Origin: Epilithonimonas hungarica
Lineage (GTDB): Bacteria; Bacteroidota; Bacteroidia; Flavobacteriales; Weeksellaceae
NCBI RefSeq assembly: GCF_900102265.1
Contig: NZ_FNBH01000005.1
Span: forward strand, 124,001 to 188,000
DNA length: 64,000 nucleotides
Direction of reading: 5' to 3'
The position numbers and the translations under genes were made by a program. Each line of letters opens with the position of its first letter. Within the stretch, counting starts at the first letter, position 1. Of the stretch, positions 29,646 to 42,362 are shown one piece after another. Below the pieces are notes generated by a model. The model was not told where the DNA came from and ran no database searches. It saw only the letters and a program-made list of their open reading frames with translations.

Positions 29646-29694
29646 ATTAGCTATGATTGATATCAAATTTATTATTTTTGTAAAAAATAAAAGT

Positions 29695-30945
29695 ATGTCG
29701 ACAGCAATTCAGGAAAAGGATTCTCAATATTTCATCGAACTCGAGAATCAGTATGGTGCTCATAATTATCATCCGCTACCCGTAGTTTTGGAAAAAGGCG
29801 AAGGTGTTTTCGTTTGGGATGTTGAAGGTGAGAAATATTACGATTTCCTTTCCGCATATTCTGCTGTCAATCAAGGACATTCTCATCCAAAAATTGTGGC
29901 GGCATTGGTAAATCAGGCCAAGAAACTAGCGCTGACATCAAGAGCGTTTTATAATTCAAATCTTGGAGAATACGAGAGAAAAATCACAACTCTTTTTGGG
30001 TTTGATAAAGTACTTCCAATGAATTCCGGCGCTGAAGCTGTAGAAACGGCTGTAAAATTAGCACGAAAATGGAGTTATGAAGTAAAAGGTATTGCAGAAA
30101 ATGCTGCAAAAATAGTAGTCTGTGAAAATAACTTCCACGGAAGAACGACAACTATTGTTTCCTTTTCAAATGATCCAGACGCCAACCAAAACTATGGACC
30201 TTTTACACCCGGATTTATAAAAATACCTTACAATGATTTAGCTGCTTTAGAAGAAATTTTTAAAAATGAAGCTAAGAATATTGCGGCATTTCTAACAGAA
30301 CCAATCCAAGGAGAAGCTGGCGTTTATGTTCCAGACGAAGGATTTTTGAAAGGCGCTTCGGAGCTTTGTAAAAAATATAATGTTCTTTTCATAGCTGATG
30401 AAGTTCAGACGGGAATCGCAAGAACCGGAAAACTGATAGCTTGTCATCACGAAGATGTTCAGCCTGATATTTTGATTCTTGGAAAAGCACTTTCAGGTGG
30501 TATGTATCCTGTTTCTGCAGTCTTGGCAAATGACGGAATCATGAATGTCATCAAACCTGGACAACATGGTTCTACGTTTGGAGGAAACCCGATTGCCTGT
30601 GCTGTTGCTGTTGCAGCTTTGGATGTTGTAGAAGAGGAAAAACTTTCGGAAAGAGCTGAAGAACTTGGACAACTTTTCCGTTCGGAAATTGAAAAATTGA
30701 TTCAGAAAACAAGTTTAATTACTAAAGTAAGAGGAAAAGGCCTTTTGAATGCAATTCTTATCAATGATACGCCAGATAGCAAAACTGCCTGGAATCTTTG
30801 TGTAAAGCTAAAAGAGAATGGTTTACTAGCGAAACCTACTCATGGAAATATTATTAGATTAGCACCACCACTGGTCATTACTGAGGAACAACTTTTGGAT
30901 TGTGTGAAAATTATCGAAAAAACATTTTTGGAGTTCGGTAATTAG
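29695..30945 (+). CDS. rocD: ornithine aminotransferase
   Basis: A 416-residue class III PLP aminotransferase that converts ornithine to glutamate semialdehyde. PLP-binding lysine is in [17 protein letters not shown], and FNSGAEA (as [18 protein letters not shown]) binds phosphate. FHGRTT and [13 protein letters not shown] are also typical of RocD. The ATG at 29695 was preferred because a TATTTTTG -7 box lies at 29673-29680. The stop is one base from the next ATG, so the glycosyltransferase cluster may start from this promoter. Confidence 0.95.
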
Positions 30946-30946
30946 A

Positions 30947-31951
30947 ATGAAGATATTGGTCATACAGAAAAAATTTATGGGTGACGTTCTCGTTACAAGT
31001 ACAATTTTACCATTATTGAAAAATAAATTTCCAGATTCTGAGATAAGTTTTCTGTTAGAAGAAAAACACGCTCAGATTTTGGTTGGGAATCCGTACATCG
31101 ATCATTTTATTTTTTTTAAAGACAGTTTTCATAAAACCTTATCAGAGGTAAAAAATCAGAAATTCGATATCGTTATTGACCTTTACTCCAAAATAGAAAC
31201 TGGAATCCTGACTTTACTTTCCGGAGCAAAAACACGGATTGGATTTTTCAAAAATTACACTCAGTTTTTGTATAATTTCCCGGTAAAAAGGGCAACAAAT
31301 TTAAAATCAAAAAACACAACATTTGGGATTGAGCATCGATTACAAATGTTAGAACCTTTGGGTATCGATTTTCAAGAAACATTCCCGAAAATTTATCTTT
31401 CAGAAGAAGAAATAGAAAACGCACATAGAATCCTTTCAGAAAATGGTTTGTCTGTTGATGATAATCTGATCATGCTGAGTACATTCGGTAGTTCAGAAGA
31501 AAAAACCTATCCGATCGAATATATGGCGGAGGTTATTAAGTATATTTTTCAATGCAAACCAAATTCGAAACTGCTTTGCAATTATATGCCTTTTCAAGAG
31601 GATCTATTTGAAGAATTATACAATCAACTTCCAGAAGATGTAAAAAAATTGGTCATAAAAAATTTTCGCACCAAAAGCTTAAGGGAATTTGCTGCAGTAG
31701 CTAGTCTTTGCAAATGTTTGATTGGAAATGAAGGAGGTGCAACTAATGTGAGTAAATCTTTGAAAATCCCTACATTTACTATATTTTCACCACAAATTCA
31801 ATTAGAAGATTGGGCTTGGACAAGTAATCCAAAAATGGACAGATTTTTGCATGTAAAGGATTTTATCCCAAATTCGGAAAGCTATTCGGATTTCAAACCA
31901 AACTATTTTGAGAAAGAATTGAAAGAATTTTTGGACAAAACTATATCATAA
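30947..31951 (+). CDS. GT9 family glycosyltransferase (heptosyltransferase-like)
   Basis: A 334-residue GT-B enzyme of family GT9. The N-terminus MKILVIQKKFMGDVLVTSTILPLLK and the motif GNEGGATNVSKSLKIPTF, standing where ADP-heptose LPS heptosyltransferases have GPxxGPxH, are family features. Family members add heptose or similar sugars to the lipopolysaccharide core. It directly follows rocD (one-base gap) and opens the eight-gene glycosyltransferase run. Confidence 0.9.
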   Translation: MKILVIQKKFMGDVLVTSTILPLLKNKFPDSEISFLLEEKHAQILVGNPYIDHFIFFKDSFHKTLSEVKNQKFDIVIDLYSKIETGILTLLSGAKTRIGFFKNYTQFLYNFPVKRATNLKSKNTTFGIEHRLQMLEPLGIDFQETFPKIYLSEEEIENAHRILSENGLSVDDNLIMLSTFGSSEEKTYPIEYMAEVIKYIFQCKPNSKLLCNYMPFQEDLFEELYNQLPEDVKKLVIKNFRTKSLREFAAVASLCKCLIGNEGGATNVSKSLKIPTFTIFSPQIQLEDWAWTSNPKMDRFLHVKDFIPNSESYSDFKPNYFEKELKEFLDKTIS

Positions 31952-31965
31952 GAATAGAAGGCAGA

Positions 31966-32922
31966 ATGCACGAAGACAAAAAAAATATACTTCTTATTAC
32001 CTTTGACAACTGGGGTTACAATCAATACATCGCAGATGCGTTGGAGAAAAAATCATATCGGGTAAAGCACGTCAACTTTCATAGTTTTGAGTATACTTAC
32101 CCAGATTTTACTCATAAGGCTTTTAATTTTATTACAAAAAATCTAGGTATCGTAAATCTTAAGCACATTCATTATAATGATATTATTACGGATGAAATTA
32201 AGAATATCAATAATATAGATACTGTTATCTACATCAAAGCTGATTTTTTATCCAAACAAACTATTGAAACAGTCAATCAAAAGGCTAAAAAGTCTGTTCT
32301 CCTCATTAACGATTCTATCAACAGATATCCGAATACGAAAAATATTCTTGGCTTATTTGATAAAGTTTTTTCTTTTGAAAGGAAAGACTGCGACAAATAT
32401 GATCTGATCTTCAAACCAAATTTTATTTATAAAACGATTGATAGAATACCAAAACATTTTAAATACAAAGTTTTCAACATAAGCTCTTATGACAAGAGAT
32501 TTCCGGTAATCAAGAAAATTGCAGAGGCTTTGTATGATCTTAACATCAAGAGCAAGATCGTTATTTTCTCTTCCAAAGAGAACAATGATCCCTATTTGGA
32601 GTTTTCAAAATGTACATTATCGATTTCTGAGATCAATGCTTTGATGGAGGAATCGGAAATAATCCTTGATGTCAATAGAAATCAGCAAGAAGGCTTAAGT
32701 TTCCGTGTTTTTGAGAGTCTGGGGCTAAAGAAAAAATTGATCACGACCAACACCGACATTGTGACCTATGATTTTTATAATCCGGAAAATATATTTGTAA
32801 TCGAGGATGTAGACAATATAAAGATCCCGCAATCTTTTCTGCAATCACCTTATAAGGTTATCCCTCAAGAGATTTTGGATAAATATCTGGTAGAAAACTG
32901 GGTGGATGAATTGATAAATTAA
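31966..32922 (+). CDS. putative GT-B-type glycosyltransferase
   Basis: A 318-residue soluble protein. Its N-terminus KNILLITFDNWGYNQYIADALEKKSYRVKHVNF looks like a nucleotide-sugar Rossmann domain. The C-terminal EIILDVNRNQQEGLSFRVFESLGLKKKLITTN resembles the donor-binding region of capsule and LPS transferases. No standard EX7E motif is complete. It sits 14 bases after the GT9 gene and probably modifies the same glycan. Assignment to a CAZy family is not possible from reading alone. Confidence 0.7.
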   Translation: MHEDKKNILLITFDNWGYNQYIADALEKKSYRVKHVNFHSFEYTYPDFTHKAFNFITKNLGIVNLKHIHYNDIITDEIKNINNIDTVIYIKADFLSKQTIETVNQKAKKSVLLINDSINRYPNTKNILGLFDKVFSFERKDCDKYDLIFKPNFIYKTIDRIPKHFKYKVFNISSYDKRFPVIKKIAEALYDLNIKSKIVIFSSKENNDPYLEFSKCTLSISEINALMEESEIILDVNRNQQEGLSFRVFESLGLKKKLITTNTDIVTYDFYNPENIFVIEDVDNIKIPQSFLQSPYKVIPQEILDKYLVENWVDELIN

Positions 32923-33009
32923 ACTGTTGTGATTTTCAAAATTATATGCTATTATAGCTGATAAATTTGGCAAGGTTTTGTTATCAAATTTTCATCAACT
33001 CTTTCCTTA

Positions 33010-33996
33010 ATGATCTCGTATAAAAAAACATCAAAAATTGTCATCTTCTGTCCTCCGAAAAAAGTAACAGGCGGACCGGAAGCCTTGCATCAATTATCTA
33101 ATAAATTGATCGAGTTGGGTGTTGGAGACGTTTTTATGCGATATATCCCTAAACGGACAAACGCCAAAGCAAAAAACTACAACATATATAAAACCAAAGA
33201 GATCTCCTTTATTGAAGATAATCCTGACAATATTCTGATCATTCCGGAATCTATGACTTTTCTGGTTAAGAGATTTCCCAAAAGTCAAAAGATCATATGG
33301 TGGTTAAGTGTAGATTTTTACAAAATTTTGATGGACCATAGAATTAGAAAACAAAGTTTTTTGACAAAGCTTTTCTATAAACAGGATGACAAAGAGTATC
33401 ATTTTGAATCGTTTCCAAATGTTTTTCATTGGGCACAATCGTTTAGGTCCAGTTTGTATTTGAAAAGTCATAAAGTTCCAGAGAATCAGATAGATTTTGT
33501 TTGTGATTACATCAATCCAAGCTTTCTGAAAAACTCTGATCAGATCCAAAAAGACCTTTCCAATAAAAATATTTTATACAATCCTAAAAAAGGGAAGGAA
33601 GAGATTGCGGAATTAATCAAAAATTCTCCGGAGCTCACTTGGATTCCTATCCAAAACATGAATGCTGAAGAGATAAAAAACCTGATGGCAAAATCTCTGT
33701 TATATGTAGATTTTGGAGAAAATCCGGGAAGAGATAAAATGCTAAGAGAATCGGTTTCACAAGACTGCTGCATCATTTCTGGAAAAAATGGTTCATCTGC
33801 ATATTATGAAGACCTGATGATTCCCGATGAGTATAAATTTGATTTCAGTAATGATAATATTCCTAAGATCTTAAATAAAATAAAAGACGTTCTTGAGAAT
33901 TATCCTGAACATATTTCTTATTTTAAAACTTATAAGGACAAAGTTCTGAATGAAGAAATTGATTTTGAAAAAAAATTAAAAGAAATTTTTATATGA
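33010..33996 (+). CDS. putative glycosyltransferase
   Basis: A 328-residue soluble protein. It begins KIVIFCPPKKVTGGPEALHQLSNKLIEL, which has the GGPE loop of acceptor domains in GT-B enzymes, and has a C-terminal region (ENPGRDKMLRESVSQDCCIISGKNGSSAYYEDL) in the donor-binding position. The 87 bases before it contain no clear promoter. It precedes the GT4 gene by 9 bases. Donor and acceptor are unknown. Confidence 0.7.
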   Translation: MISYKKTSKIVIFCPPKKVTGGPEALHQLSNKLIELGVGDVFMRYIPKRTNAKAKNYNIYKTKEISFIEDNPDNILIIPESMTFLVKRFPKSQKIIWWLSVDFYKILMDHRIRKQSFLTKLFYKQDDKEYHFESFPNVFHWAQSFRSSLYLKSHKVPENQIDFVCDYINPSFLKNSDQIQKDLSNKNILYNPKKGKEEIAELIKNSPELTWIPIQNMNAEEIKNLMAKSLLYVDFGENPGRDKMLRESVSQDCCIISGKNGSSAYYEDLMIPDEYKFDFSNDNIPKILNKIKDVLENYPEHISYFKTYKDKVLNEEIDFEKKLKEIFI

Positions 33997-34005
33997 AAAT
34001 TTGCT

Positions 34006-35289
34006 ATGAGTGAAGAAAAGCAAAAATTTGGAGTAAATATGTCTGGACTTTTCAACGCCGAAATTGGTTTTGGAGAAGCTATCCGTAATAATCTTAAAGC
34101 ATTAGAAAAAGTAGGAGTTCCTGCAAAACCTATCAACTTCAATATGCAACTCGGTCATAGATTAAACGATAATTCTGTGAACTTTGATGACAATATAAAT
34201 GATTATCCTGTCAATATCGTTCATGTTAACATGGATACGATATGGAGTTTTTTAAAAGAAAAATCTTCTGAATTTTTTGAAAACAAATATAATATTGGAT
34301 ATTGGGCTTGGGAAATGGAAGAATTCCCAGATGAATATGTAGAATATTTCAAATATTATGATGAGATTTGGACCTGCTCAAAGTATTGTCTTGATTCTAT
34401 GTCTTTAAAATCCGACATCCCCGTTATTAACATTCCTCATGCAATCGATATTGATAAAAAGGATATAAATGAAAACTTCGAGACCGACCTTACTGGTGAA
34501 TCTTATCATTTTCTTTTCATTTTTGATTACAACAGTCTCATTGAGCGTAAAAATACGTTAGCAGTTATAGATGCTTATGAAAAAGCTTTTGGCAAGGATA
34601 ATGGAAAGGTAAAACTTGTTCTCAAAACTTCTATTCCAGGAAGTCATCTTTCAAAAGCAAGAAGCCAAGTAAAAACAAGAATTGGCAACAATAAAAGCAT
34701 TATTTATAAAGAAGAAATGCTGAGAAGAAATGATTTGTTGGCCTTAATGAACAAAGCCAATTGTTACATTTCCCTACATCGTTCGGAAGGTTTCGGTCTC
34801 ACAATGGCCGAAGCAATGGCACTCGGTAAGCCGGTCATTGCAACAGGTTATTCTGGCAATCTAGATTTCATGAATATCAATAATTCATTTTTGGTGAAAT
34901 ATAAAATGATAAAACATGAGTATGATTTGAGCGTTTTACCAAAAAACAATTATTGGTCTGATCCCGATACGGATCATGCAGCAGAATTGATGAAATTTGT
35001 ATTTGAAAACCAGAGCTATGCCTCTGAAATAGGAAAGAAAGCAAAAGAAGATATTCAAAATTATTTTTCATTGGACGCAATAGGCAAAAAAATGAAAAAA
35101 AGGTTGGAAATTATTGAAAATACAATTTTGAAAGAAAGAGATAATCAAGAAGTAAAAAACAATCTGATCAAATTATTGAGTGAAAACAAGATTTTACAGA
35201 AAAGAGTGACATATCTTGAAAAAGGTTTTTATAATAAGGCTAGAAAAAAAATAAATGAAATTCTAAAAAAAATAAAAGGCAGGAATTAA
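34006..35289 (+). CDS. family 4 glycosyltransferase with C-terminal helical tail
   Basis: A 427-residue GT4 (GT-B) enzyme. The EX7E-type donor motif is EGFGLTMAEAMALGKPVIATGYSGN, and the acceptor domain opens with MSGLFNAEIGFGEAIRNNLKALEK. The last about 60 residues (LKERDNQEVKNNLIKLLSENKIL onward) look like a coiled coil with a very basic end, which could tether it to the membrane or to a partner; this is an inference. It is in the middle of the cluster, 26 bases before the next GT4. Confidence 0.9.
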   Translation: MSEEKQKFGVNMSGLFNAEIGFGEAIRNNLKALEKVGVPAKPINFNMQLGHRLNDNSVNFDDNINDYPVNIVHVNMDTIWSFLKEKSSEFFENKYNIGYWAWEMEEFPDEYVEYFKYYDEIWTCSKYCLDSMSLKSDIPVINIPHAIDIDKKDINENFETDLTGESYHFLFIFDYNSLIERKNTLAVIDAYEKAFGKDNGKVKLVLKTSIPGSHLSKARSQVKTRIGNNKSIIYKEEMLRRNDLLALMNKANCYISLHRSEGFGLTMAEAMALGKPVIATGYSGNLDFMNINNSFLVKYKMIKHEYDLSVLPKNNYWSDPDTDHAAELMKFVFENQSYASEIGKKAKEDIQNYFSLDAIGKKMKKRLEIIENTILKERDNQEVKNNLIKLLSENKILQKRVTYLEKGFYNKARKKINEILKKIKGRN

Positions 35290-35315
35290 TTCCCCTTGGT
35301 TTACCTATTTTAATC

Positions 35316-36563
35316 ATGAAAGAAAAAATTGCAATAGTTGTTCAAAGATATGGTTTGGAAATAAACGGAGGGGCTGAGCTTCATGCGCGATTGCTTGCTG
35401 AAAAATTATCTCCTCTTTATAATACTGAAGTCATTACAACTTGTGCAATAGAATATGAATTTTGGGATAATTATTATCCTGAAGGAACGGAACTCATCAA
35501 TGATATTAAAGTAAGAAGATTCAAAACATTAAAAAAAGATTTAAAAAGATTTAATCAGCTTAGCAAAATTGTTCAAAATATTTATAGATACAGTACGAAA
35601 AATTTAAATTTTTTAAATTTTCCTTACTTACTCTACAAACGAATAAAATACAATAAAAAAGCAATCGATTTTAATGAATGGCTGGAAGCACAAGGCCCTT
35701 ACTCAAGTGATTTAATTGATTTTATAAAAGAAAAAAAAGAAGATTATAATGCATTTATCTTCTTTACTTATCTTTATCACCCTACCAATATTGGAATTAA
35801 AGAAATAGCTGAAAAAAGCATTCTAATTCCTACAGCTCATGATGAACCCCAATTCTATCTTGATGGTTATGCTCAATTGTTTTCCAGTCCAAAATTTATT
35901 TTTTATAATACCCAAACAGAAAAAGATCTGGTGGAAAAAGTCTATCCCCAGACAAAAAAAATAGAATCCGAAATCGCTGGAATTGGATTTGATGATTATG
36001 ATACAACAACAAGCAAATTACCTGAATACCTTTCTCCCAAAAAATATTTTATTTACATAGGAAGAATTGTAGAAGATAAGGGTTGTGTTATGATGATCGA
36101 GTATTTTAAAAATTTCAAAAAGGCAAACTCAAAATATCTAGATATAAAATTAGTATTGGTCGGCAAAAATTCTCTTGATAAAAAAACAATTCTTGGGGAT
36201 GATATAATCCTAACAGGATTTGTAGACCACACTTTAAAAAACACATTGCTTGCAAATGCCTCCGCCCTTATAATGCCCTCATTTTACGAGAGTCTCTCTT
36301 TGATAACATTGGAATCTATGTTATTGGAAGTTCCTGTAATTGTAAACAAAGCATGTGAAGTCTTATATTCTCATATCAAAAAAAGCGAAACAGGAAAAAG
36401 CTTCACTAATAGTTTTGAATTTTCCCAAGCTCTTATTTACTATATTGAACACAAACAAAATGATTTAATTTTAGAGGGTAACAAAGCCAAAAACTATGTG
36501 TTAGAAAATTACTCATGGAATGCTATCATAAACAAATACAATTCAGCCATTAAATCTTTATGA
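35316..36563 (+). CDS. family 4 glycosyltransferase
   Basis: A 415-residue GT4 enzyme. The N-terminus KIAIVVQRYGLEINGGAELHARLLAEKL and the donor-site motif PSFYESLSLITLESMLLEVPVIVN are clear, with FIYIGRIVEDKGCVMMIEYF as the linker strand. The DNA is strikingly A-rich compared with flanking housekeeping genes. Its stop overlaps the next start by four bases (ATGA), so translation is coupled. Confidence 0.9.
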   Translation: MKEKIAIVVQRYGLEINGGAELHARLLAEKLSPLYNTEVITTCAIEYEFWDNYYPEGTELINDIKVRRFKTLKKDLKRFNQLSKIVQNIYRYSTKNLNFLNFPYLLYKRIKYNKKAIDFNEWLEAQGPYSSDLIDFIKEKKEDYNAFIFFTYLYHPTNIGIKEIAEKSILIPTAHDEPQFYLDGYAQLFSSPKFIFYNTQTEKDLVEKVYPQTKKIESEIAGIGFDDYDTTTSKLPEYLSPKKYFIYIGRIVEDKGCVMMIEYFKNFKKANSKYLDIKLVLVGKNSLDKKTILGDDIILTGFVDHTLKNTLLANASALIMPSFYESLSLITLESMLLEVPVIVNKACEVLYSHIKKSETGKSFTNSFEFSQALIYYIEHKQNDLILEGNKAKNYVLENYSWNAIINKYNSAIKSL

Positions 36564-37702
36564 CAAAAAAAATTCTATTTTTTTTCCCGGAAAATCCATT
36601 TTCTAGCCGAGCTGGAAATGTAACTAGAGCAAAGACAACACTTTCTATTTTAAAAAAATTAGGAAATCATATTGATCTGGTAGGTGTAAGTGAAATCTAC
36701 AGTGAACAAAATGACACCACAGAAGTCAATTCGGATATTGTAGATAATTTGTTTTTAATTAGGCAAAGACCACCAAAAAAAAAGACTTCTTTGGATTATT
36801 GGGAACATAAAATTTTACAAAATTTTACAAAACCTAATCCGTATAATTTTGCATTGACAAATTTTGCAAAGAAAGAATTCGTGGAAATTTTTAACAAGGG
36901 CAAATATCATATTATTATCATCAATTATGAATTTTGGACAGGATTAATCGACGATGTATCAATGAAAAACACTAAAAAAATTATTGATACACATGATTGG
37001 ATCACACTAAATGAATTTTATAAAAACAAATCATTAGATATTGGCAAACGTTTTAATGAAGAAATAAATAATCTCTCAAAGTTTGATAAAATAATAACAA
37101 TATCAGAGGACGAACATATTGTTTTTAAAAGATTTTTAGGAAAAAAAGTAATAAATATACCTCCTTCTTTTCCTGCCCATTTTGAAACTAATCTTAAGAA
37201 AAAATACGATTTAATTTTTGTCGGTTCAGAAAATATTTTCAATATAAAATCGATGCAATGGTTCTTTGAAAATGTTTATCCTTTCTTACCAAAAAATATT
37301 AACATTGTAATTATCGGAAGAATCTGCAGGCGCATTGAAAAAAAGACCAATGTGGAATTAATAGAGTTTGTAGAAAGCTTAGAGGAATATTATGGACAGT
37401 CTAAAATCGCTATCTGCCCAATGTTGGAAGGTACTGGCATTAAAATCAAAGTGATAGAAGCTCTTTCTTACGGGCTTCCTATAGTAGGAACCGAACGATC
37501 GATTGACGGCTTCTCATCAAAGTTATCAAATGGATGTTTAGTGGCGGATGACCCCGAAAAATTCAGAGACAACATAGTTTCTTTATTGGAAAATAAACCC
37601 TACTATGATGAGATAAAAAAAGATGCGGAAAGATATTTTAATAATAATTTTGATGAACAAAATGCAGAAAAAAAATGGAAAAAAACTTTAAGCGATGAAT
37701 GA
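36560..37702 (+). CDS. family 4-like glycosyltransferase
   Basis: A 380-residue GT-B enzyme. The N-terminus is KILFFFPENPFSSRAGNVTRAKTTLSILKKLG. In the donor domain, CPMLEGTGIKIKVIEALSYGLPIVGTERSIDGF corresponds to the GT4 EX7E region. Overlaps the preceding gene by four bases and the following by eight, so three genes are translationally linked. The coding strand is very A-rich with several lysine-rich tracts. Specific sugar unknown. Confidence 0.88.
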   Translation: MTKKILFFFPENPFSSRAGNVTRAKTTLSILKKLGNHIDLVGVSEIYSEQNDTTEVNSDIVDNLFLIRQRPPKKKTSLDYWEHKILQNFTKPNPYNFALTNFAKKEFVEIFNKGKYHIIIINYEFWTGLIDDVSMKNTKKIIDTHDWITLNEFYKNKSLDIGKRFNEEINNLSKFDKIITISEDEHIVFKRFLGKKVINIPPSFPAHFETNLKKKYDLIFVGSENIFNIKSMQWFFENVYPFLPKNINIVIIGRICRRIEKKTNVELIEFVESLEEYYGQSKIAICPMLEGTGIKIKVIEALSYGLPIVGTERSIDGFSSKLSNGCLVADDPEKFRDNIVSLLENKPYYDEIKKDAERYFNNNFDEQNAEKKWKKTLSDE

Positions 37703-38579
37703 CCTGGCGATTATCATACTGAACTATAATTCTTTTGACGACACCAACAGAGAAATCAATTCTTTATTAAATGAGAATTTCCCGGAAAAAGCGATCTATG
37801 TCGTAGACAATAATTCTAAAGACAAAGAGCTGATAAAAGAACTAGGGTGTCAAAAAAATGTGAATATCATTCTCAGTGATCATAACGGTGGCTATGCCTA
37901 TGGTAACAACTTGGCAATAAAAAAAGCAATTGAAGATGGAAAGAATTATTTCCTATTATTGAATCCTGATATTGAAATATCAGTAGACAACATTAAAAGA
38001 TTATATGACAACTTAAGGGAATTTACCAATATTGGCATAATAGGACCTAGGATCTGCTATAGAAATGACCGTAATAAAATATTTTCAGATGGTGGCTTAT
38101 TGTTCCCTGAACAAGGTTTTATGGGCGGACATACTAATTCTGAAGAAGATAAGAGAAATGTAATAACACAACATTTTAATTACAATATAAATTATATTGA
38201 CGGGAGTGCCCTTATGTTCAGAAAAGAAATAATAGATGAAATAGGATCGATGAATGAAGATTTTTTCATGTATTATGAAGAATCTGAGTGGTGTATGCGC
38301 CTTCTCAAGAACACAAAATGGAAAATAGCAGTCAACACAAAATGTGAAGCTTATAATATTGCAAGCAATAAAGGCAGCTTTTATGAATATTATATGACCA
38401 GAAATCGCATTTGGATTTGTCGATTATATAACGGAAATATAAATTATGTCACCAAAGAAAGATGGAGACTTACAAGAAAAGCTTTGAAAAAATTAAAACT
38501 TTCTTTAGCAAAAGCTTACATAAAAGGAATATTTGATGGGCTATATACCAAATTGGAATTAAAAATAAAACATGAGTAA
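37695..38579 (+). CDS. family 2 glycosyltransferase (rhamnosyltransferase-like)
   Basis: A 294-residue GT-A enzyme. DLAIIILNYNSFDDT, YVVDNNSKD and SDHNGGYAYGNNLAI bind the nucleotide sugar, and LLNPDIEI (around 90) takes the DxD role as in rhamnosyltransferases. The C-terminal YYEESEWCMRLLK is the usual general-base region (EXW). It overlaps both neighbours by eight bases. A role in side-chain or O-antigen synthesis is inferred. Confidence 0.9.
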   Translation: MNDLAIIILNYNSFDDTNREINSLLNENFPEKAIYVVDNNSKDKELIKELGCQKNVNIILSDHNGGYAYGNNLAIKKAIEDGKNYFLLLNPDIEISVDNIKRLYDNLREFTNIGIIGPRICYRNDRNKIFSDGGLLFPEQGFMGGHTNSEEDKRNVITQHFNYNINYIDGSALMFRKEIIDEIGSMNEDFFMYYEESEWCMRLLKNTKWKIAVNTKCEAYNIASNKGSFYEYYMTRNRIWICRLYNGNINYVTKERWRLTRKALKKLKLSLAKAYIKGIFDGLYTKLELKIKHE

Positions 38580-39456
38580 CAAAAAAAGCGTTATTAAGGT
38601 CGGGTATCTTCTATCTTATGACTATTCCTATATCTTCACATCTCTTGAGCACATTTATGAGTATGCAGATCATATCGTAATAAGCTATGATGCTAATCAT
38701 AAAACTTGGGCTGGTAATGAGATCCATATTCCAGAAAATGTTTTCATTGATATAAAAAAACTCGACACCGAGAATAAAATTGTATTGTATAAAGATGCTT
38801 TTTATATAGATGGAATGCAGCCAATGGACCTGGAAACCAGACAGAGAAATATGATGGCGGAGAAAATGGGGGCGGGTGGCTGGCATATTCAAATGGATGG
38901 AGATGAATATGCTTATGATTTCAGAATGTTAACTCAATTTTTACGAAAAAATAAATATTTACTAAGAAAACCTGCTAAGACACCCATAAATTTCCAAGTA
39001 AATTTTGTTACCCTATTTAAGCAGAATAATGAAGGCTATTTTGTCATAGTTCCATTTGAAGAGAAATGTATGCTCATTACAAACACTCCTAAGTATGCAT
39101 ATGCCCGAAATACCAATATTGGCAGAATTCTTCCCTTGGATTATTATCTAATTCATCAATCTTGGGCAAGAAATGAAGATGAAATTTCAGAAAAAATAAA
39201 TAATTGGGGACATAAAAATGATTTTGACACTTCAGAATTCTTTGATAAATGGAAAGAGATTGATTCTGACAATTATAAAAATTTCGCAGATTTCCATCCT
39301 TTATATAAGACTTTATGGAAAGAGCTGTCTTTTTTTCCTTCCAAAAACATCAATGATTTTATATCTTCTTTTTCTAAAAAACACATACAGAAGAAACAAT
39401 ATTTGAAGTTATCCTTAACAAAAAAAATAAAACTTTATATAAGAAGTTTGTTCTAA
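38572..39456 (+). CDS. putative GT-A-type glycosyltransferase
   Basis: A 294-residue protein. The opening VIKVGYLLSYDYSYIFTSLEHIYEYADHIVISYD and the motif MDGDEY (D109, D111) resemble a GT-A nucleotide-sugar site, but the protein is not a standard GT2. It may belong to a less-characterised polysaccharide family. The basic C-terminus ends the glycosyltransferase run. It overlaps the previous gene by eight bases, and no strong terminator follows. Confidence 0.75.
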   Translation: MSNKKSVIKVGYLLSYDYSYIFTSLEHIYEYADHIVISYDANHKTWAGNEIHIPENVFIDIKKLDTENKIVLYKDAFYIDGMQPMDLETRQRNMMAEKMGAGGWHIQMDGDEYAYDFRMLTQFLRKNKYLLRKPAKTPINFQVNFVTLFKQNNEGYFVIVPFEEKCMLITNTPKYAYARNTNIGRILPLDYYLIHQSWARNEDEISEKINNWGHKNDFDTSEFFDKWKEIDSDNYKNFADFHPLYKTLWKELSFFPSKNINDFISSFSKKHIQKKQYLKLSLTKKIKLYIRSLF

Positions 39457-39546: not shown

Positions 39547-40302
39547 TTATTTATTTTTATCCCAAAGAGCAATGCCTCTAGCATCATAAATGACCAGATT
39601 ACCGTCATTCTGTATGGATATTTTTTGTGCATTTGTACCTTCGGTATTGGTGTAAAATACTGGGCGGTCCGCATTATTATACACTACCAGATTTCCATCA
39701 TTTTGAAACTCTGCCCTGTTTCCATAACCATCCGTTTTACTGGACCATAGTGGCGTTTGGCTAAATTTGCTGTATAAAACAAGGTTTCCGTCATTCTGGA
39801 AGGTTATATAATACTTCATATTTGTAGAATAAAGTTTTTTGTTTTTTTCAAAAACATATCCTTTATATATGGTTCCATTTCTATAATTACCATTGTTGCT
39901 GGAACCACTCCCATTTTCCGTAGAAGTTTGCGAAGCCCAGAGCGCCGTACCATTACGGTTATAGATAACAAGATTTCCATCAGTCTGCATATCCATTCTT
40001 ATTGCGTTCTTATTATTAGTATTAGAGCTAAAGACCGCATTTGCAGAAGAATCATAGACCACAAAATTCCCATCCATTTGAAACACTGCTTTCTTCCCTT
40101 TTCCATCAGTCCTAGAGCTCCATTGTGCAATATTATTTCTATTCAGTATCACCAAATTTCCGTCATTCTGAAACACAACCTTATATTTTCTATCTGAAGA
40201 ACTGTATATCTGCCCCATTACTAGATTTGTTCCAAGACCAAAACTTTGTGCAATAAATTGGGTGCTTATTATAATAAGTAAGAAAACAAATGTTTTTTTC
40301 AT
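39547..40302 (-). CDS. secreted tandem B-lectin (MMBL / mannose-binding lectin) protein
   Basis: A 251-residue protein with a signal peptide (MKKTFVFLLIIISTQFIAQ) and two tandem bulb-lectin domains, residues about 22-125 and 142-251, separated by a Gly/Ser/Asn linker. The sugar-binding motif QxDxNxVxY occurs six times, starting at Q45, Q75, Q106, Q169, Q200 and Q231, spaced 30-31 residues within each domain as in monocot mannose-binding lectins. The first has Leu instead of the final Tyr (QNDGNLVIL). The ATG at 40302 gives the signal peptide directly. Size and two-domain layout match LlpA lectin-like bacteriocins, but adhesion or glycan recognition are equally possible. Confidence 0.88.
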   Translation of the reverse strand: MKKTFVFLLIIISTQFIAQSFGLGTNLVMGQIYSSSDRKYKVVFQNDGNLVILNRNNIAQWSSRTDGKGKKAVFQMDGNFVVYDSSANAVFSSNTNNKNAIRMDMQTDGNLVIYNRNGTALWASQTSTENGSGSSNNGNYRNGTIYKGYVFEKNKKLYSTNMKYYITFQNDGNLVLYSKFSQTPLWSSKTDGYGNRAEFQNDGNLVVYNNADRPVFYTNTEGTNAQKISIQNDGNLVIYDARGIALWDKNK

Positions 40303-40372
40303 AGTATTTTGATTTGTTATCAAATCTATCAATAATAATTATCCAAACAAAATAAAAAAGTTGATAACAAAA

Positions 40373-40717
40373 TCAACTCCTATCATACTCATCCTCCAGT
40401 CTCACAATATCATCTTCACCAAAGTAAGTTCCTGTCTGCACTTCTATGAAAACAACAGGTTTGTCTGTAAGGTTCATGATTCTATGTTTTGCTCCAAGGG
40501 GAATAAAGATGCTTTGTCCGTAAGCCAAAGGGATTTCCTCACCATCCAAAACTATGGTTGCATTGCCTTCGATAATTGTCCACTGTTCCTGTCTTTTGTA
40601 ATGGAATTGGTAGGATAATTTCTGTCCGGGATTGACTTCTATTCGTTTCAATTTATAATGTGGCTCATCTGCTAGCACAAAATATTTTCCCCAAGGTCTT
40701 TCGCCTATTTCTAACAT
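40373..40717 (-). CDS. phosphomannose-isomerase-like cupin
   Basis: A 114-residue single-domain cupin. ERPWGKYFVL, HYKRQEQWTIIEGNA and IPLGAKHRIMNL match the C-terminal isomerase domain of bifunctional mannose-1-phosphate guanylyltransferase/mannose-6-phosphate isomerase (type II). Standing alone, it may isomerise mannose-6-phosphate/fructose-6-phosphate or a related sugar nucleotide. I use the ATG at 40717, which begins the conserved domain. It lies between the lectin gene (same strand) and gltX (divergent). Mannose supply for the surface glycan would fit the context but is inferred. Confidence 0.82.
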   Translation of the reverse strand: MLEIGERPWGKYFVLADEPHYKLKRIEVNPGQKLSYQFHYKRQEQWTIIEGNATIVLDGEEIPLAYGQSIFIPLGAKHRIMNLTDKPVVFIEVQTGTYFGEDDIVRLEDEYDRS

Positions 40718-40853
40718 AGTTTTTATTTTAATACACAAAAATACCATTTCGAAAAAGATTAACCAAATTCAAAAGACAAAACGGGAAGAATTTCTTAATT
40801 TTGCCCCACAATTTTTTGGTCATGAACATGGCTTGTAAAATAAATATCTATTT

Positions 40854-42362
40854 ATGAAAAAAGTAAGAGTGCGTTTTGCACCAAGTCCAACAGGAGCTTT
40901 ACATTTAGGAGGTGTGAGAACCGCTTTGTATGATTATCTTTTTGCGAAAAATCAGGGAGGAGAATTTGTCCTTAGAATAGAGGATACCGATACTGCAAGG
41001 TATGTAGAAGGTGCAGAAGATTATATTATGAATTCCTTGGAATGGTGTGGAATTATCCCTGATGAAAGTCCAAGAATTGGCGGTCCTTATGCTCCTTACA
41101 GGCAATCTGAAAGGAGAGATATTTATGATAGGTACAAAGAGCAGATTTTGAAAACCGACTATGCTTATCTGGCTTTTGATACGCCAGAAGAATTGGACGC
41201 CATCAGAAAAGACTTCGAAGCTAAAGGTGATGTTTTCTCTTACAATTATCAGACAAGACAACAATTAAAGAATAGTATTTCTCTTTCCCAGGAAGAAGTC
41301 CAGAAATTACTGGATGCAAATATTCCATATGTTGTTCGTTTCAAAATGCCGGTTGACAGAACTTTGAATCTTCAGGATATTATCAGGGGAAATTTTTCTG
41401 TAAATACAAACACTTTGGATGACAAGGTTTTGATTAAAAATGACGGAATGCCAACTTACCATTTCGCGAATGTAGTTGATGATTTCGAAATGAAGATCTC
41501 ACACGTCATCCGAGGCGAAGAATGGTTACCATCCATGCCTTTGCATGTTTTGCTTTACGAAGCGATGAATTGGGAAGCCCCTGAGTTTGCACATCTTTCA
41601 TTGATTCTAAAACCTGAGGGTAAAGGAAAATTAAGCAAAAGAGACGGCGCAAAATTTGGTTTTCCGGTTTTCCCGATGGATTTCAAAGATCCGGAAAGTG
41701 GTGAGATCTGGAAAGGCTATAAAGAATCCGGATATTTTCCTGAAGCTTTCATCAATATGACAGCACTACTTGGTTGGACACCTGCAAATGACAGAGAAAT
41801 AATTTCTATGGACGAGATGATCGCTGAATTTGACCTTCATAAGGTTCATAAAGCAGGCGCAAGATTCGATCCTCAGAAAGCAAAATGGTTTAACCAAGAA
41901 TATCTTAAAATTAAATCGAATGAAGAAGTTTTAGAATTGTTAAAAGAAGTCGATGAAGTAAGATCTTTGAATCTTTCTGATGACAAATTAATGAAAATAG
42001 TTTCATTAATGAAAGAAAGAGCAACTTTCGTTATTGATATTTATAACGATGGTAAATTCTTCTTCGAAGCACCAACAACCTACGATGAAAAAGCATTGAA
42101 AAAAGCTTGGAACGATACAACCTCTGCAGTTCTAAAAGATTTATCTGTTAAACTGGAGACATCAGAATTTGATTCAGAAACCTTGAAAGAAGCGATTCAT
42201 CATTTTGCAGAAGAGCATTCTTTGGGAATGGGAAAAGTGATGATGCCACTTCGTCTTGCTCTAGTAGGAGAACTTAAAGGTCCTGATGTTCCAGATATTA
42301 TGAACATCATTGGAAAAGAAGAGACGTTGGCTAGAATTGAAAAAGCTATCAATTCAAATTAA
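40854..42362 (+). CDS. gltX: glutamyl-tRNA synthetase
   Basis: A 502-residue class I synthetase. The HIGH-type motif is in RFAPSPTGALHLGGVRTALY and the KMSKS-type motif is KGKLSKRDGAKFG. The DDFEMKISHVIRGEEWL segment is typical of GluRS. It charges tRNA-Glu. A TAATTTTG -7 box lies at 40796-40803. Single gene, followed by accA with its own -7 box. Confidence 0.98.
   Translation: MKKVRVRFAPSPTGALHLGGVRTALYDYLFAKNQGGEFVLRIEDTDTARYVEGAEDYIMNSLEWCGIIPDESPRIGGPYAPYRQSERRDIYDRYKEQILKTDYAYLAFDTPEELDAIRKDFEAKGDVFSYNYQTRQQLKNSISLSQEEVQKLLDANIPYVVRFKMPVDRTLNLQDIIRGNFSVNTNTLDDKVLIKNDGMPTYHFANVVDDFEMKISHVIRGEEWLPSMPLHVLLYEAMNWEAPEFAHLSLILKPEGKGKLSKRDGAKFGFPVFPMDFKDPESGEIWKGYKESGYFPEAFINMTALLGWTPANDREIISMDEMIAEFDLHKVHKAGARFDPQKAKWFNQEYLKIKSNEEVLELLKEVDEVRSLNLSDDKLMKIVSLMKERATFVIDIYNDGKFFFEAPTTYDEKALKKAWNDTTSAVLKDLSVKLETSEFDSETLKEAIHHFAEEHSLGMGKVMMPLRLALVGELKGPDVPDIMNIIGKEETLARIEKAINSN

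What the first reader, a model, noticed from the sequence alone, without database searches (positions are those of the whole stretch)
39547..40302. Tandem mannose-lectin protein, possible lectin-like bacteriocin, beside a glycan cluster
The sequence shows a signal peptide and two B-lectin domains with six QxDxNxVxY-type sites at near-even spacing (Q45, 75, 106 / 169, 200, 231), all but the first with the final Tyr. LlpA-type bacteriocins of gamma-proteobacteria have the same two-domain size and bind surface polysaccharides. Here the gene ends about 90 bases from an eight-gene glycosyltransferase cluster. A Bacteroidota killing or self-glycan-binding role is an inference; LlpA proteins usually lack a cleavable signal, and this one has one.
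Basis: partly seen in the sequence, partly recalled or inferred. Interest (0 to 1): 0.65.

Follow-up and report, generated by a model that had tools for sequence, protein, structure and literature searches.

The report
Secreted tandem lectin in toxin slot
This gene encodes a secreted two-domain sugar-binding protein; the spot it occupies, at the end of a variable surface-sugar gene cluster, is filled in related bacteria by relatives of bacteria-killing pore toxins, so it may be a weapon against competitors, which can now be tested.

Summary
The ORF (251 aa, ATG at 40302, minus strand) has a signal peptide and two B-lectin domains with six sugar-site cores, five complete. Two beta-prism II domains are predicted; best whole-length PDB matches are pyocin L1, LlpA and the plant tandem lectin SCAfet. 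Membership in LlpA is not supported: the C-terminal extension is absent, and both domains are equally conserved with intact sites.

Location is not random for this branch. All 10 clade-A loci found (four genera) lie between gltX and glycan genes; none of 28 sister clade-B loci is beside gltX. In the Chryseobacterium genus, MACPF genes crowd the same side of gltX: 66 of 70 same-contig matches within 20 kb. Ten of ten MACPFs scanned in one call (eight slot, two in-cluster) match the BSAP5a pore-forming toxin family, below cut-off. Two genomes carry both MACPF and lectin there. Clusters with the window's glycosyltransferase order carry MACPF instead of lectin.

Best reading: a secreted surface-glycan-directed lectin, probably antagonistic. 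Killing is untested; self-glycan binding remains a serious rival.

The parts
39547..40302 (-). secreted tandem B-lectin protein, 251 aa
   Evidence: Pfam PF01453 3.9e-20; AlphaFold mean pLDDT 79.8; PDB matches; signal peptide by eye with invariant A18-Q19 in seven homologues
39931..40245 (-). N-terminal B-lectin domain, about residues 20-124, site cores at Q45, Q75, Q106 (first site lacks Tyr)
39556..39873 (-). C-terminal B-lectin domain, about residues 144-249, three complete sites at Q169, Q200, Q231; protein ends four residues after the last Trp
40321..40351 (-). promoter-like sequence TTTG-N19-TAGATTTG (Bacteroidota consensus as recalled), ending 18 bases before the ATG
   Evidence: 11 strict matches on both strands of the whole window; within 250 bases upstream in only 3 of 42 lectin genes, not in the L006 orthologue, so weak
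40373..40747 (-). cupin, mannose-6-phosphate isomerase C-terminal type, between gltX and the lectin
   Evidence: PF01050 2.7e-34; match in 21 of 23 genus genomes; layout
40854..42362 (+). gltX (glutamyl-tRNA synthetase; name recalled, no family scan run), conserved edge of the variable locus
   Evidence: identity across loci
38572..39456 (+). last gene of the glycan cluster (family f60, no Pfam match); 19 of 19 Chryseobacterium-genus homologues on the gltX contig lie within 8 kb of gltX
30947..38579 (+). other seven genes of the glycan cluster: GT9 heptosyltransferase-like, WaaS/CpsH family, one unassigned, three with Glycos_transf_1-type domains, one GT2
29653..30945 (+). ornithine aminotransferase, other edge of the variable locus
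   Evidence: TIGR01885, 673 bits; family f12 recurs at related loci

Best explanation
A secreted, multivalent surface-glycan-binding lectin that occupies an antagonism slot at the gltX end of a hypervariable surface-glycan (LPS-type) locus. Shown by computation: two intact B-lectin domains, the clade-A linkage to the glycan locus, and sharing of the slot, in other genera, with MACPF genes related to the BSAP5a toxin family. Inferred: after Sec export the protein reaches the cell surface or medium by an unknown route, binds mannose- or 6-deoxymannose-like residues on the surface glycan of competing strains, and harms or blocks them; the producer is spared because its own neighbouring glycan genes make a coat that the lectin does not bind, as reported for BSAP-2 and its O-antigen in Bacteroides uniformis.
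For: Domains and sites. Fold. 10 of 10 clade-A two-domain loci have gltX one to three genes upstream on the opposite strand and a family with a glycosyltransferase match within three genes downstream; 0 of 28 clade-B loci are beside gltX. In the Chryseobacterium genus 66 of 70 MACPF matches on the gltX contig lie within 20 kb on the 5' side of gltX, 51 of them within 8 kb. L065 and L066 have MACPF and lectin together in the slot. The order f60-f59-f34-f49-f48 is the same in the window and in Chryseobacterium-genus loci L169, L171, L173 that hold one or two MACPFs plus a 321-aa gene where the window holds lectin plus cupin. Ten of ten MACPFs scanned (eight slot, two in-cluster) match BSAP5a_fam, E 1.6e-13 to 1.2e-24. 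The gene is under purifying selection, dN/dS about 0.17 to L006. Precedent: PMC4999547, abstract and passages.
Against: No killing or binding data. No C-terminal extension as in LlpA. No genome of the window's own genus is among the 69 with a MACPF match, so slot sharing comes from other genera. Between the window and L006 the lectin's synonymous divergence (pS 0.51) matches gltX (0.57), not the glycosyltransferases (0.69-0.78), so it was not co-acquired with the present glycan genes in that pair. Slot position within clade A may be plain inheritance, since A is one clade. Three of five Chryseobacterium-genus clade-A genomes have no MACPF match. The MACPF scores (50-87 bits) are far below the BSAP5a cut-off of 500, and a B. 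uniformis MACPF beside an O-antigen locus showed no antimicrobial activity. Lectin-first and MACPF-first loci share no detectable leader sequence.
Confidence: 0.42

Rival explanations
1. Self-glycan lectin: the protein binds the polysaccharide made by the neighbouring cluster and serves as a cell-surface or biofilm-matrix cross-linker, its six sites giving multivalency.
For: All six site cores kept, unlike LlpA; signal peptide; constant position beside glycan genes; in two of five pairs compared within clade A the lectin's synonymous divergence tracks the adjacent glycosyltransferase f40 (0.095 vs 0.081; 0.123 vs 0.144) and lies below gltX (0.247; 0.334).
Against: Glycan genes beside the lectin differ between the clade-A sub-lineages, although some families recur, so the lectin would have to be re-tuned; slot shared with toxin-like MACPF genes; homologues in only 45 of 320 family genomes at E <= 1e-10.
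Confidence: 0.3
2. Anti-eukaryote lectin: binds mannans of fungi, protozoa or host cells, like plant GNA lectins.
For: Five complete mannose-type sites; matches to plant and fungal lectins.
Against: The glycan-locus linkage of clade A has no obvious reason under this reading; the MACPFs of the slot match a bacterial-target BSAP model, though weakly.
Confidence: 0.13
3. Inherited position without a functional link: an ancestral family gene that happened to sit beside gltX and was lost many times.
For: Clade A is one clade in the lectin tree; in the window-L006 pair lectin pS resembles gltX and accA.
Against: In two pairs the lectin shares the recent history of the adjacent glycosyltransferase rather than of gltX; MACPF genes of a different fold converge on the same spot.
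Confidence: 0.15

Closest known systems
LlpA lectin-like bacteriocins (putidacin L1, pyocin L1; NCBIfam NF033557)
   Same: Two B-lectin domains, similar size; a Sec signal as in pyocin L3 and the Xanthomonas and Burkholderia members (PMC6240691, sections 4 and 9)
   Different: No C-terminal extension; all six site cores kept; N and C domains equally conserved; score 195 against cut-off 275
Tandem MMBL genes of Chryseobacterium and Spirosoma mentioned in PMC6240691 section 7
   Same: Same kind of gene in the same phylum; existence already in print in one sentence
   Different: That section says nothing of their gene context, clades, or link to glycan loci or MACPF genes
BSAP MACPF toxins of Bacteroidales (BSAP-2 at the O-antigen locus, PMC4999547)
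   Same: Position beside the surface-glycan locus; patchy presence
   Different: Different fold; the lectin has no MACPF match
SCAfet and GNA-type plant mannose lectins
   Same: Beta-prism II, QxDxNxVxY sites; SCAfet is also a tandem
   Different: Here a secreted bacterial protein from a gene beside a glycan locus

Membership tests
LlpA lectin-like bacteriocin | two B-lectin domains in tandem | tested here: met
LlpA lectin-like bacteriocin | C-terminal extension after the second domain (PMC6240691 abstract and section 4) | tested here: not met
   the protein ends 4 residues after its last Trp, whereas the phage LlpA-like control (L190/L191, alike over the shared stretch, so one control) runs on well past it; LlpA 4gc1 aligns only to residue 243 of 275
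LlpA lectin-like bacteriocin | sites conserved mainly in the C domain; N domain more diverged (PMC6240691 section 4) | tested here: not met
   six cores, five complete; mean identity N 0.61, C 0.59 in clade A
LlpA lectin-like bacteriocin | NCBIfam LLB_putidacin cut-off 275 bits | tested here: inconclusive
   195 bits, but the phage LlpA-like controls score only 176 and a three-domain Chryseobacterium-genus lectin scores 333, so the cut-off does not discriminate here
LlpA lectin-like bacteriocin | kills related strains; BamA and D-rhamnose binding | not testable with these tools
   needs protein and strains
B-lectin (GNA/MMBL) domain family | beta-prism II fold with QxDxNxVxY sites | tested here: met
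B-lectin (GNA/MMBL) domain family | binds mannose-type sugars | not testable with these tools
   inferred from motifs only
BSAP (MACPF) antimicrobial proteins | MACPF domain | tested here: not met
   only B_lectin above its cut-off; no MACPF match in the window's genome
BSAP (MACPF) antimicrobial proteins | gene beside the variable surface-glycan locus, as BSAP-2 (PMC4999547) | tested here: met

The most novel reading that the evidence does not exclude
Weeksellaceae carry a dedicated weapon slot at the gltX end of their variable surface-glycan locus, filled either by BSAP-related MACPF toxins or by tandem B-lectins; the lectin is then a new class of Bacteroidota bacteriocin whose self-immunity is the adjacent glycan type rather than an immunity protein.
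Probability: 0.33. Interest if true: 0.75.

Novelty: new variant of a known kind. Interest (0 to 1): 0.55.

Why it matters
If right, it extends the reported BSAP pattern (toxin gene beside the genes for the resistant surface molecule) from gut Bacteroidales to Flavobacteriales and to a second, unrelated protein fold, gives a positional rule for finding further weapons, and makes it testable whether lectins help drive surface-glycan diversity. It would also give the Bacteroidota tandem lectins, which the 2018 review only listed, a testable role.

Tried and rejected
Membership in LlpA: rejected on two tested features. Co-acquisition of the lectin with its present glycan genes as one cassette: suggested by the amino-acid identity step between window and L006, not upheld by synonymous divergence for that pair; of five further clade-A pairs, two fit it (L065/L066, L064/L067), two show no clear difference (L064/L065, L067/L066) and in L095/L102 the lectin exceeds every other gene compared. 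Low G+C as a mark of recent gain: lectin 0.349, window 0.354, glycan block 0.306, so not seen. Shared leader between lectin-first and MACPF-first slots: none found. Relatives in viral contigs: none; the three phage hits are Pseudomonas phages at 28-31% identity. No PADLOC match. No PDB sequence match for one slot MACPF at E 0.01. Order-level draw of 395 genomes: 12 matches, all in the window's own family.

Limits. Foldseek matches to the tandem structures have whole-length TM-scores of only about 0.3-0.4 because the mutual orientation of the domains is uncertain (pTM 0.48); VIA-align rows cover mostly residues 17-195. Insect-directed reading of the slot MACPFs: PMC9937505 (passages only) describes insecticidal Chryseobacterium lipoproteins and names MACPF only for a Chromobacterium protein; I did not compare those proteins with the slot MACPFs, so this is not excluded.

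In print: searches for Chryseobacterium with MMBL, B-lectin or MACPF, and for MACPF or BSAP with Flavobacteriia or Weeksellaceae (the last two listed 15 of 319 and 15 of 21 papers) showed nothing on this slot in what was listed; the library lacks most subscription papers. McEneany 2018 (MACPF genes and LPS glycan diversity) is not held; only its title was seen, in a reference list.

Full report
What is there. The gene at 39547-40302 (minus strand) encodes 251 residues from the ATG at 40302; the mechanical ORF adds ten residues from a TTG. The protein starts with a signal peptide (by eye) and carries two B-lectin domains, Pfam E = 3.9e-20. Site cores lie at Q45, Q75, Q106, Q169, Q200 and Q231; five of six are complete QxDxNxVxY. 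AlphaFold gives two all-beta domains (mean pLDDT 79.8) with uncertain mutual orientation (pTM 0.48). The best whole-length PDB matches are pyocin L1, LlpA and the plant tandem lectin SCAfet, E down to 1.4e-13 but whole-length TM-scores of only about 0.3-0.4; the N domain matches single B-lectin domains with Z up to 17. No other B-lectin gene was found in its genome.

Is it an LlpA? The 2018 review (PMC6240691; abstract and sections 4, 7, 8 and 9 read) describes LlpA as two B-lectin domains plus a C-terminal extension, with sites conserved mainly in the C domain and a more diverged N domain. Here the extension is absent and the domains are equally conserved (mean identity 0.61 and 0.59 in clade A, 0.74 and 0.71 in clade B); a phage-encoded LlpA-like protein (L190 and L191, alike over their shared stretch, so one control, itself below the NCBIfam cut-off) shows the extension and a degenerate N domain, while a tandem lectin of an Arthrobacter plasmid has neither. 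The NCBIfam model scores 195 against a cut-off of 275, but that cut-off does not discriminate: the phage control scores 176 and a three-domain lectin 333. The review also shows that some LlpAs have Sec signals, and it mentions tandem lectin genes in Chryseobacterium, so the bare existence of such genes is known.

Distribution. A match at E <= 1e-10 was found in 45 of 320 family genomes and in 2 of 23 genomes of the window's genus: itself and one single-domain protein (134 aa). I fetched flanks for 40 of those 45 genomes and added the window and one named relative, L006 (Flavobacteriaceae PS02293, 75% identical); flanks of G087, G175, G261 and G279 were not fetched. Of the 42 loci, 10 lie between gltX and glycan genes (clade A), 28 share another locus behind a small RRM protein gene (clade B), and 4 lie elsewhere. 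RRM and DUF4153 of the B locus were scanned; other names there are recalled. The tree (41 proteins, the single-domain one left out) separates A from B with one change (100/98); the two three-domain proteins fall inside A although they lie elsewhere, and L094, also elsewhere, falls beside B. In the order-level draw 12 of 395 genomes matched, all of the window's family.

The slot. In all 10 clade-A loci gltX lies one to three genes upstream on the opposite strand, and a family with a glycosyltransferase match lies within three genes downstream (families scanned). Of 20 genus members that lack the lectin, 17 have the cupin directly beside gltX, L122 has only a 60-aa overlapping ORF between them, L116 one gene, and L123 has a cupin relative without gltX beside it; in most of them other glycan genes follow, with differing content. 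In L065 the gene between gltX and lectin is a 462-aa MACPF lipoprotein; in L066 it is such a MACPF plus a 199-aa ORF (MACPF and DUF5648 matches for L066). A family-wide search found MACPF in 69 of 320 genomes, 91 matches, none in the window's genus. gltX was located in 132 of 173 genomes of the Chryseobacterium genus. Of the 91 MACPF matches 8 were in genomes without a gltX row, 13 on other contigs and 70 on the gltX contig; 66 of the 70 lie within 20 kb on the 5' side of gltX and 51 within 8 kb. A 21-kb target in a genome of 4-5 Mb would catch about 0.5% by chance (my estimate). By contrast 4 of 18 same-contig lectins lie there, all clade A. Ten MACPFs were scanned (eight from the slot, two from inside the cluster): all ten match BSAP5a_fam (E 1.6e-13 to 1.2e-24), each far below the 500-bit cut-off, as does an eleventh.

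Same sugar genes, different slot gene. The window's last cluster gene (f60) has homologues in 30 of 320 family genomes. Of the 23 in the Chryseobacterium genus, 4 have no gltX row and 19 of the other 19 lie within 8 kb of gltX. In G190, G207 and G103 (L169, L171, L173) the order f60-f59-f34-f49-f48 is that of the window, but the slot holds one or two MACPFs and a 321-aa gene instead of lectin and cupin; G115 (L170) has the same order with the 321-aa gene only. That gene has a weak glycosyltransferase match below cut-off. These loci were among 20 chosen by me to show slot architecture, not drawn at random.

How it moves. Between window and L006 the lectin is 75-76% identical, the glycosyltransferases 65-88%, and gltX, accA and cupin 94-98%. 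Synonymous divergence tells another story: lectin pS 0.51, accA 0.56, gltX 0.57, cupin 0.63, cluster genes 0.69-0.78. So in this pair the lectin shares the history of the flank and evolves faster in protein sequence under purifying selection (dN/dS about 0.17, my own Nei-Gojobori-type script). Of five further pairs, in L065/L066 and L064/L067 the lectin tracks the adjacent glycosyltransferase f40 (0.095 and 0.081 against gltX 0.247; 0.123 and 0.144 against 0.334); in L064/L065 and L067/L066 the three are alike; in L095/L102 the lectin (0.613) exceeds gltX (0.421) and the cluster genes compared (0.467-0.519). Eight genus members are closer to the window by gltX than L006 is, yet lack the lectin; the gltX tree of the genus is poorly resolved. 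The picture is an old slot gene, often lost or exchanged. Values above about 0.5 are partly saturated, so rough.

Mechanism. [quoted passage not shown] The same positional logic suggests a secreted lectin that acts on competitors' surface sugars, with the producer's own glycan as immunity. The sharing of the slot with MACPF genes is the main reason to prefer this over self-binding. That the locus makes LPS rather than capsule rests on its GT9 heptosyltransferase-like and WaaS/CpsH genes and is an inference. The export route beyond the inner membrane is unknown.

Verdict. Observation confirmed; LlpA label not upheld; a new variant of a known kind (tandem B-lectin) in an unexpected and testable position. 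On rechecking I mended counts (cupin adjacency, chance estimate, make-up of the MACPF scan, pair comparisons); none required a change of odds.

Noticed in passing
gltX side of Chryseobacterium-genus genomes, e.g. L065, L066, L169-L181: MACPF genes of this genus crowd the gltX end of the variable glycan locus or lie inside it (66 of 70 same-contig matches within 20 kb, of 91 in all); shorter 341-343 aa MACPFs lie deeper in the cluster (L179, L181).
   Followed up: partly
L069:8256-9353, L070:8285-9382: Three-domain B-lectin proteins (365 aa, nine complete sites) away from the glycan locus; L069 passes the LLB_putidacin cut-off (333 bits), probably only because it has more domains.
   Followed up: partly
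28 clade-B loci among L072-L101: A sister clade of tandem lectins at a fixed locus behind a small RRM protein gene; site four lacks its Tyr in the five examples aligned.
   Followed up: partly
L174:3275-4519, L180:6786-8051: Lipoprotein-like proteins of 414-421 aa inside the glycan locus; the L180 one has no Pfam match at E 1.
   Followed up: no
L190:1492-2331, L191:1459-2331: Pseudomonas phages Hali and Pacha_bin_1 encode LlpA-like proteins annotated as hypothetical; the L191 form keeps a full signal peptide.
   Followed up: partly
L193:2851-4806: A long CDS with B-lectin similarity on an Eleftheria terrae plasmid lies near two glycosyltransferase genes.
   Followed up: no
L065 versus L066, slot MACPF: The MACPF genes differ far more (pS 0.54) than the lectin (0.095) or gltX (0.25) of the same pair, as if the MACPF had been exchanged.
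   Followed up: no
G006:C12:29992-30848; L067 (G052): The f60 homologue of G006 is split with stop codons in one piece, and the gltX of G052 gave no hit at 1e-150 although its locus holds two gltX-like pieces, perhaps a frame error.
   Followed up: no
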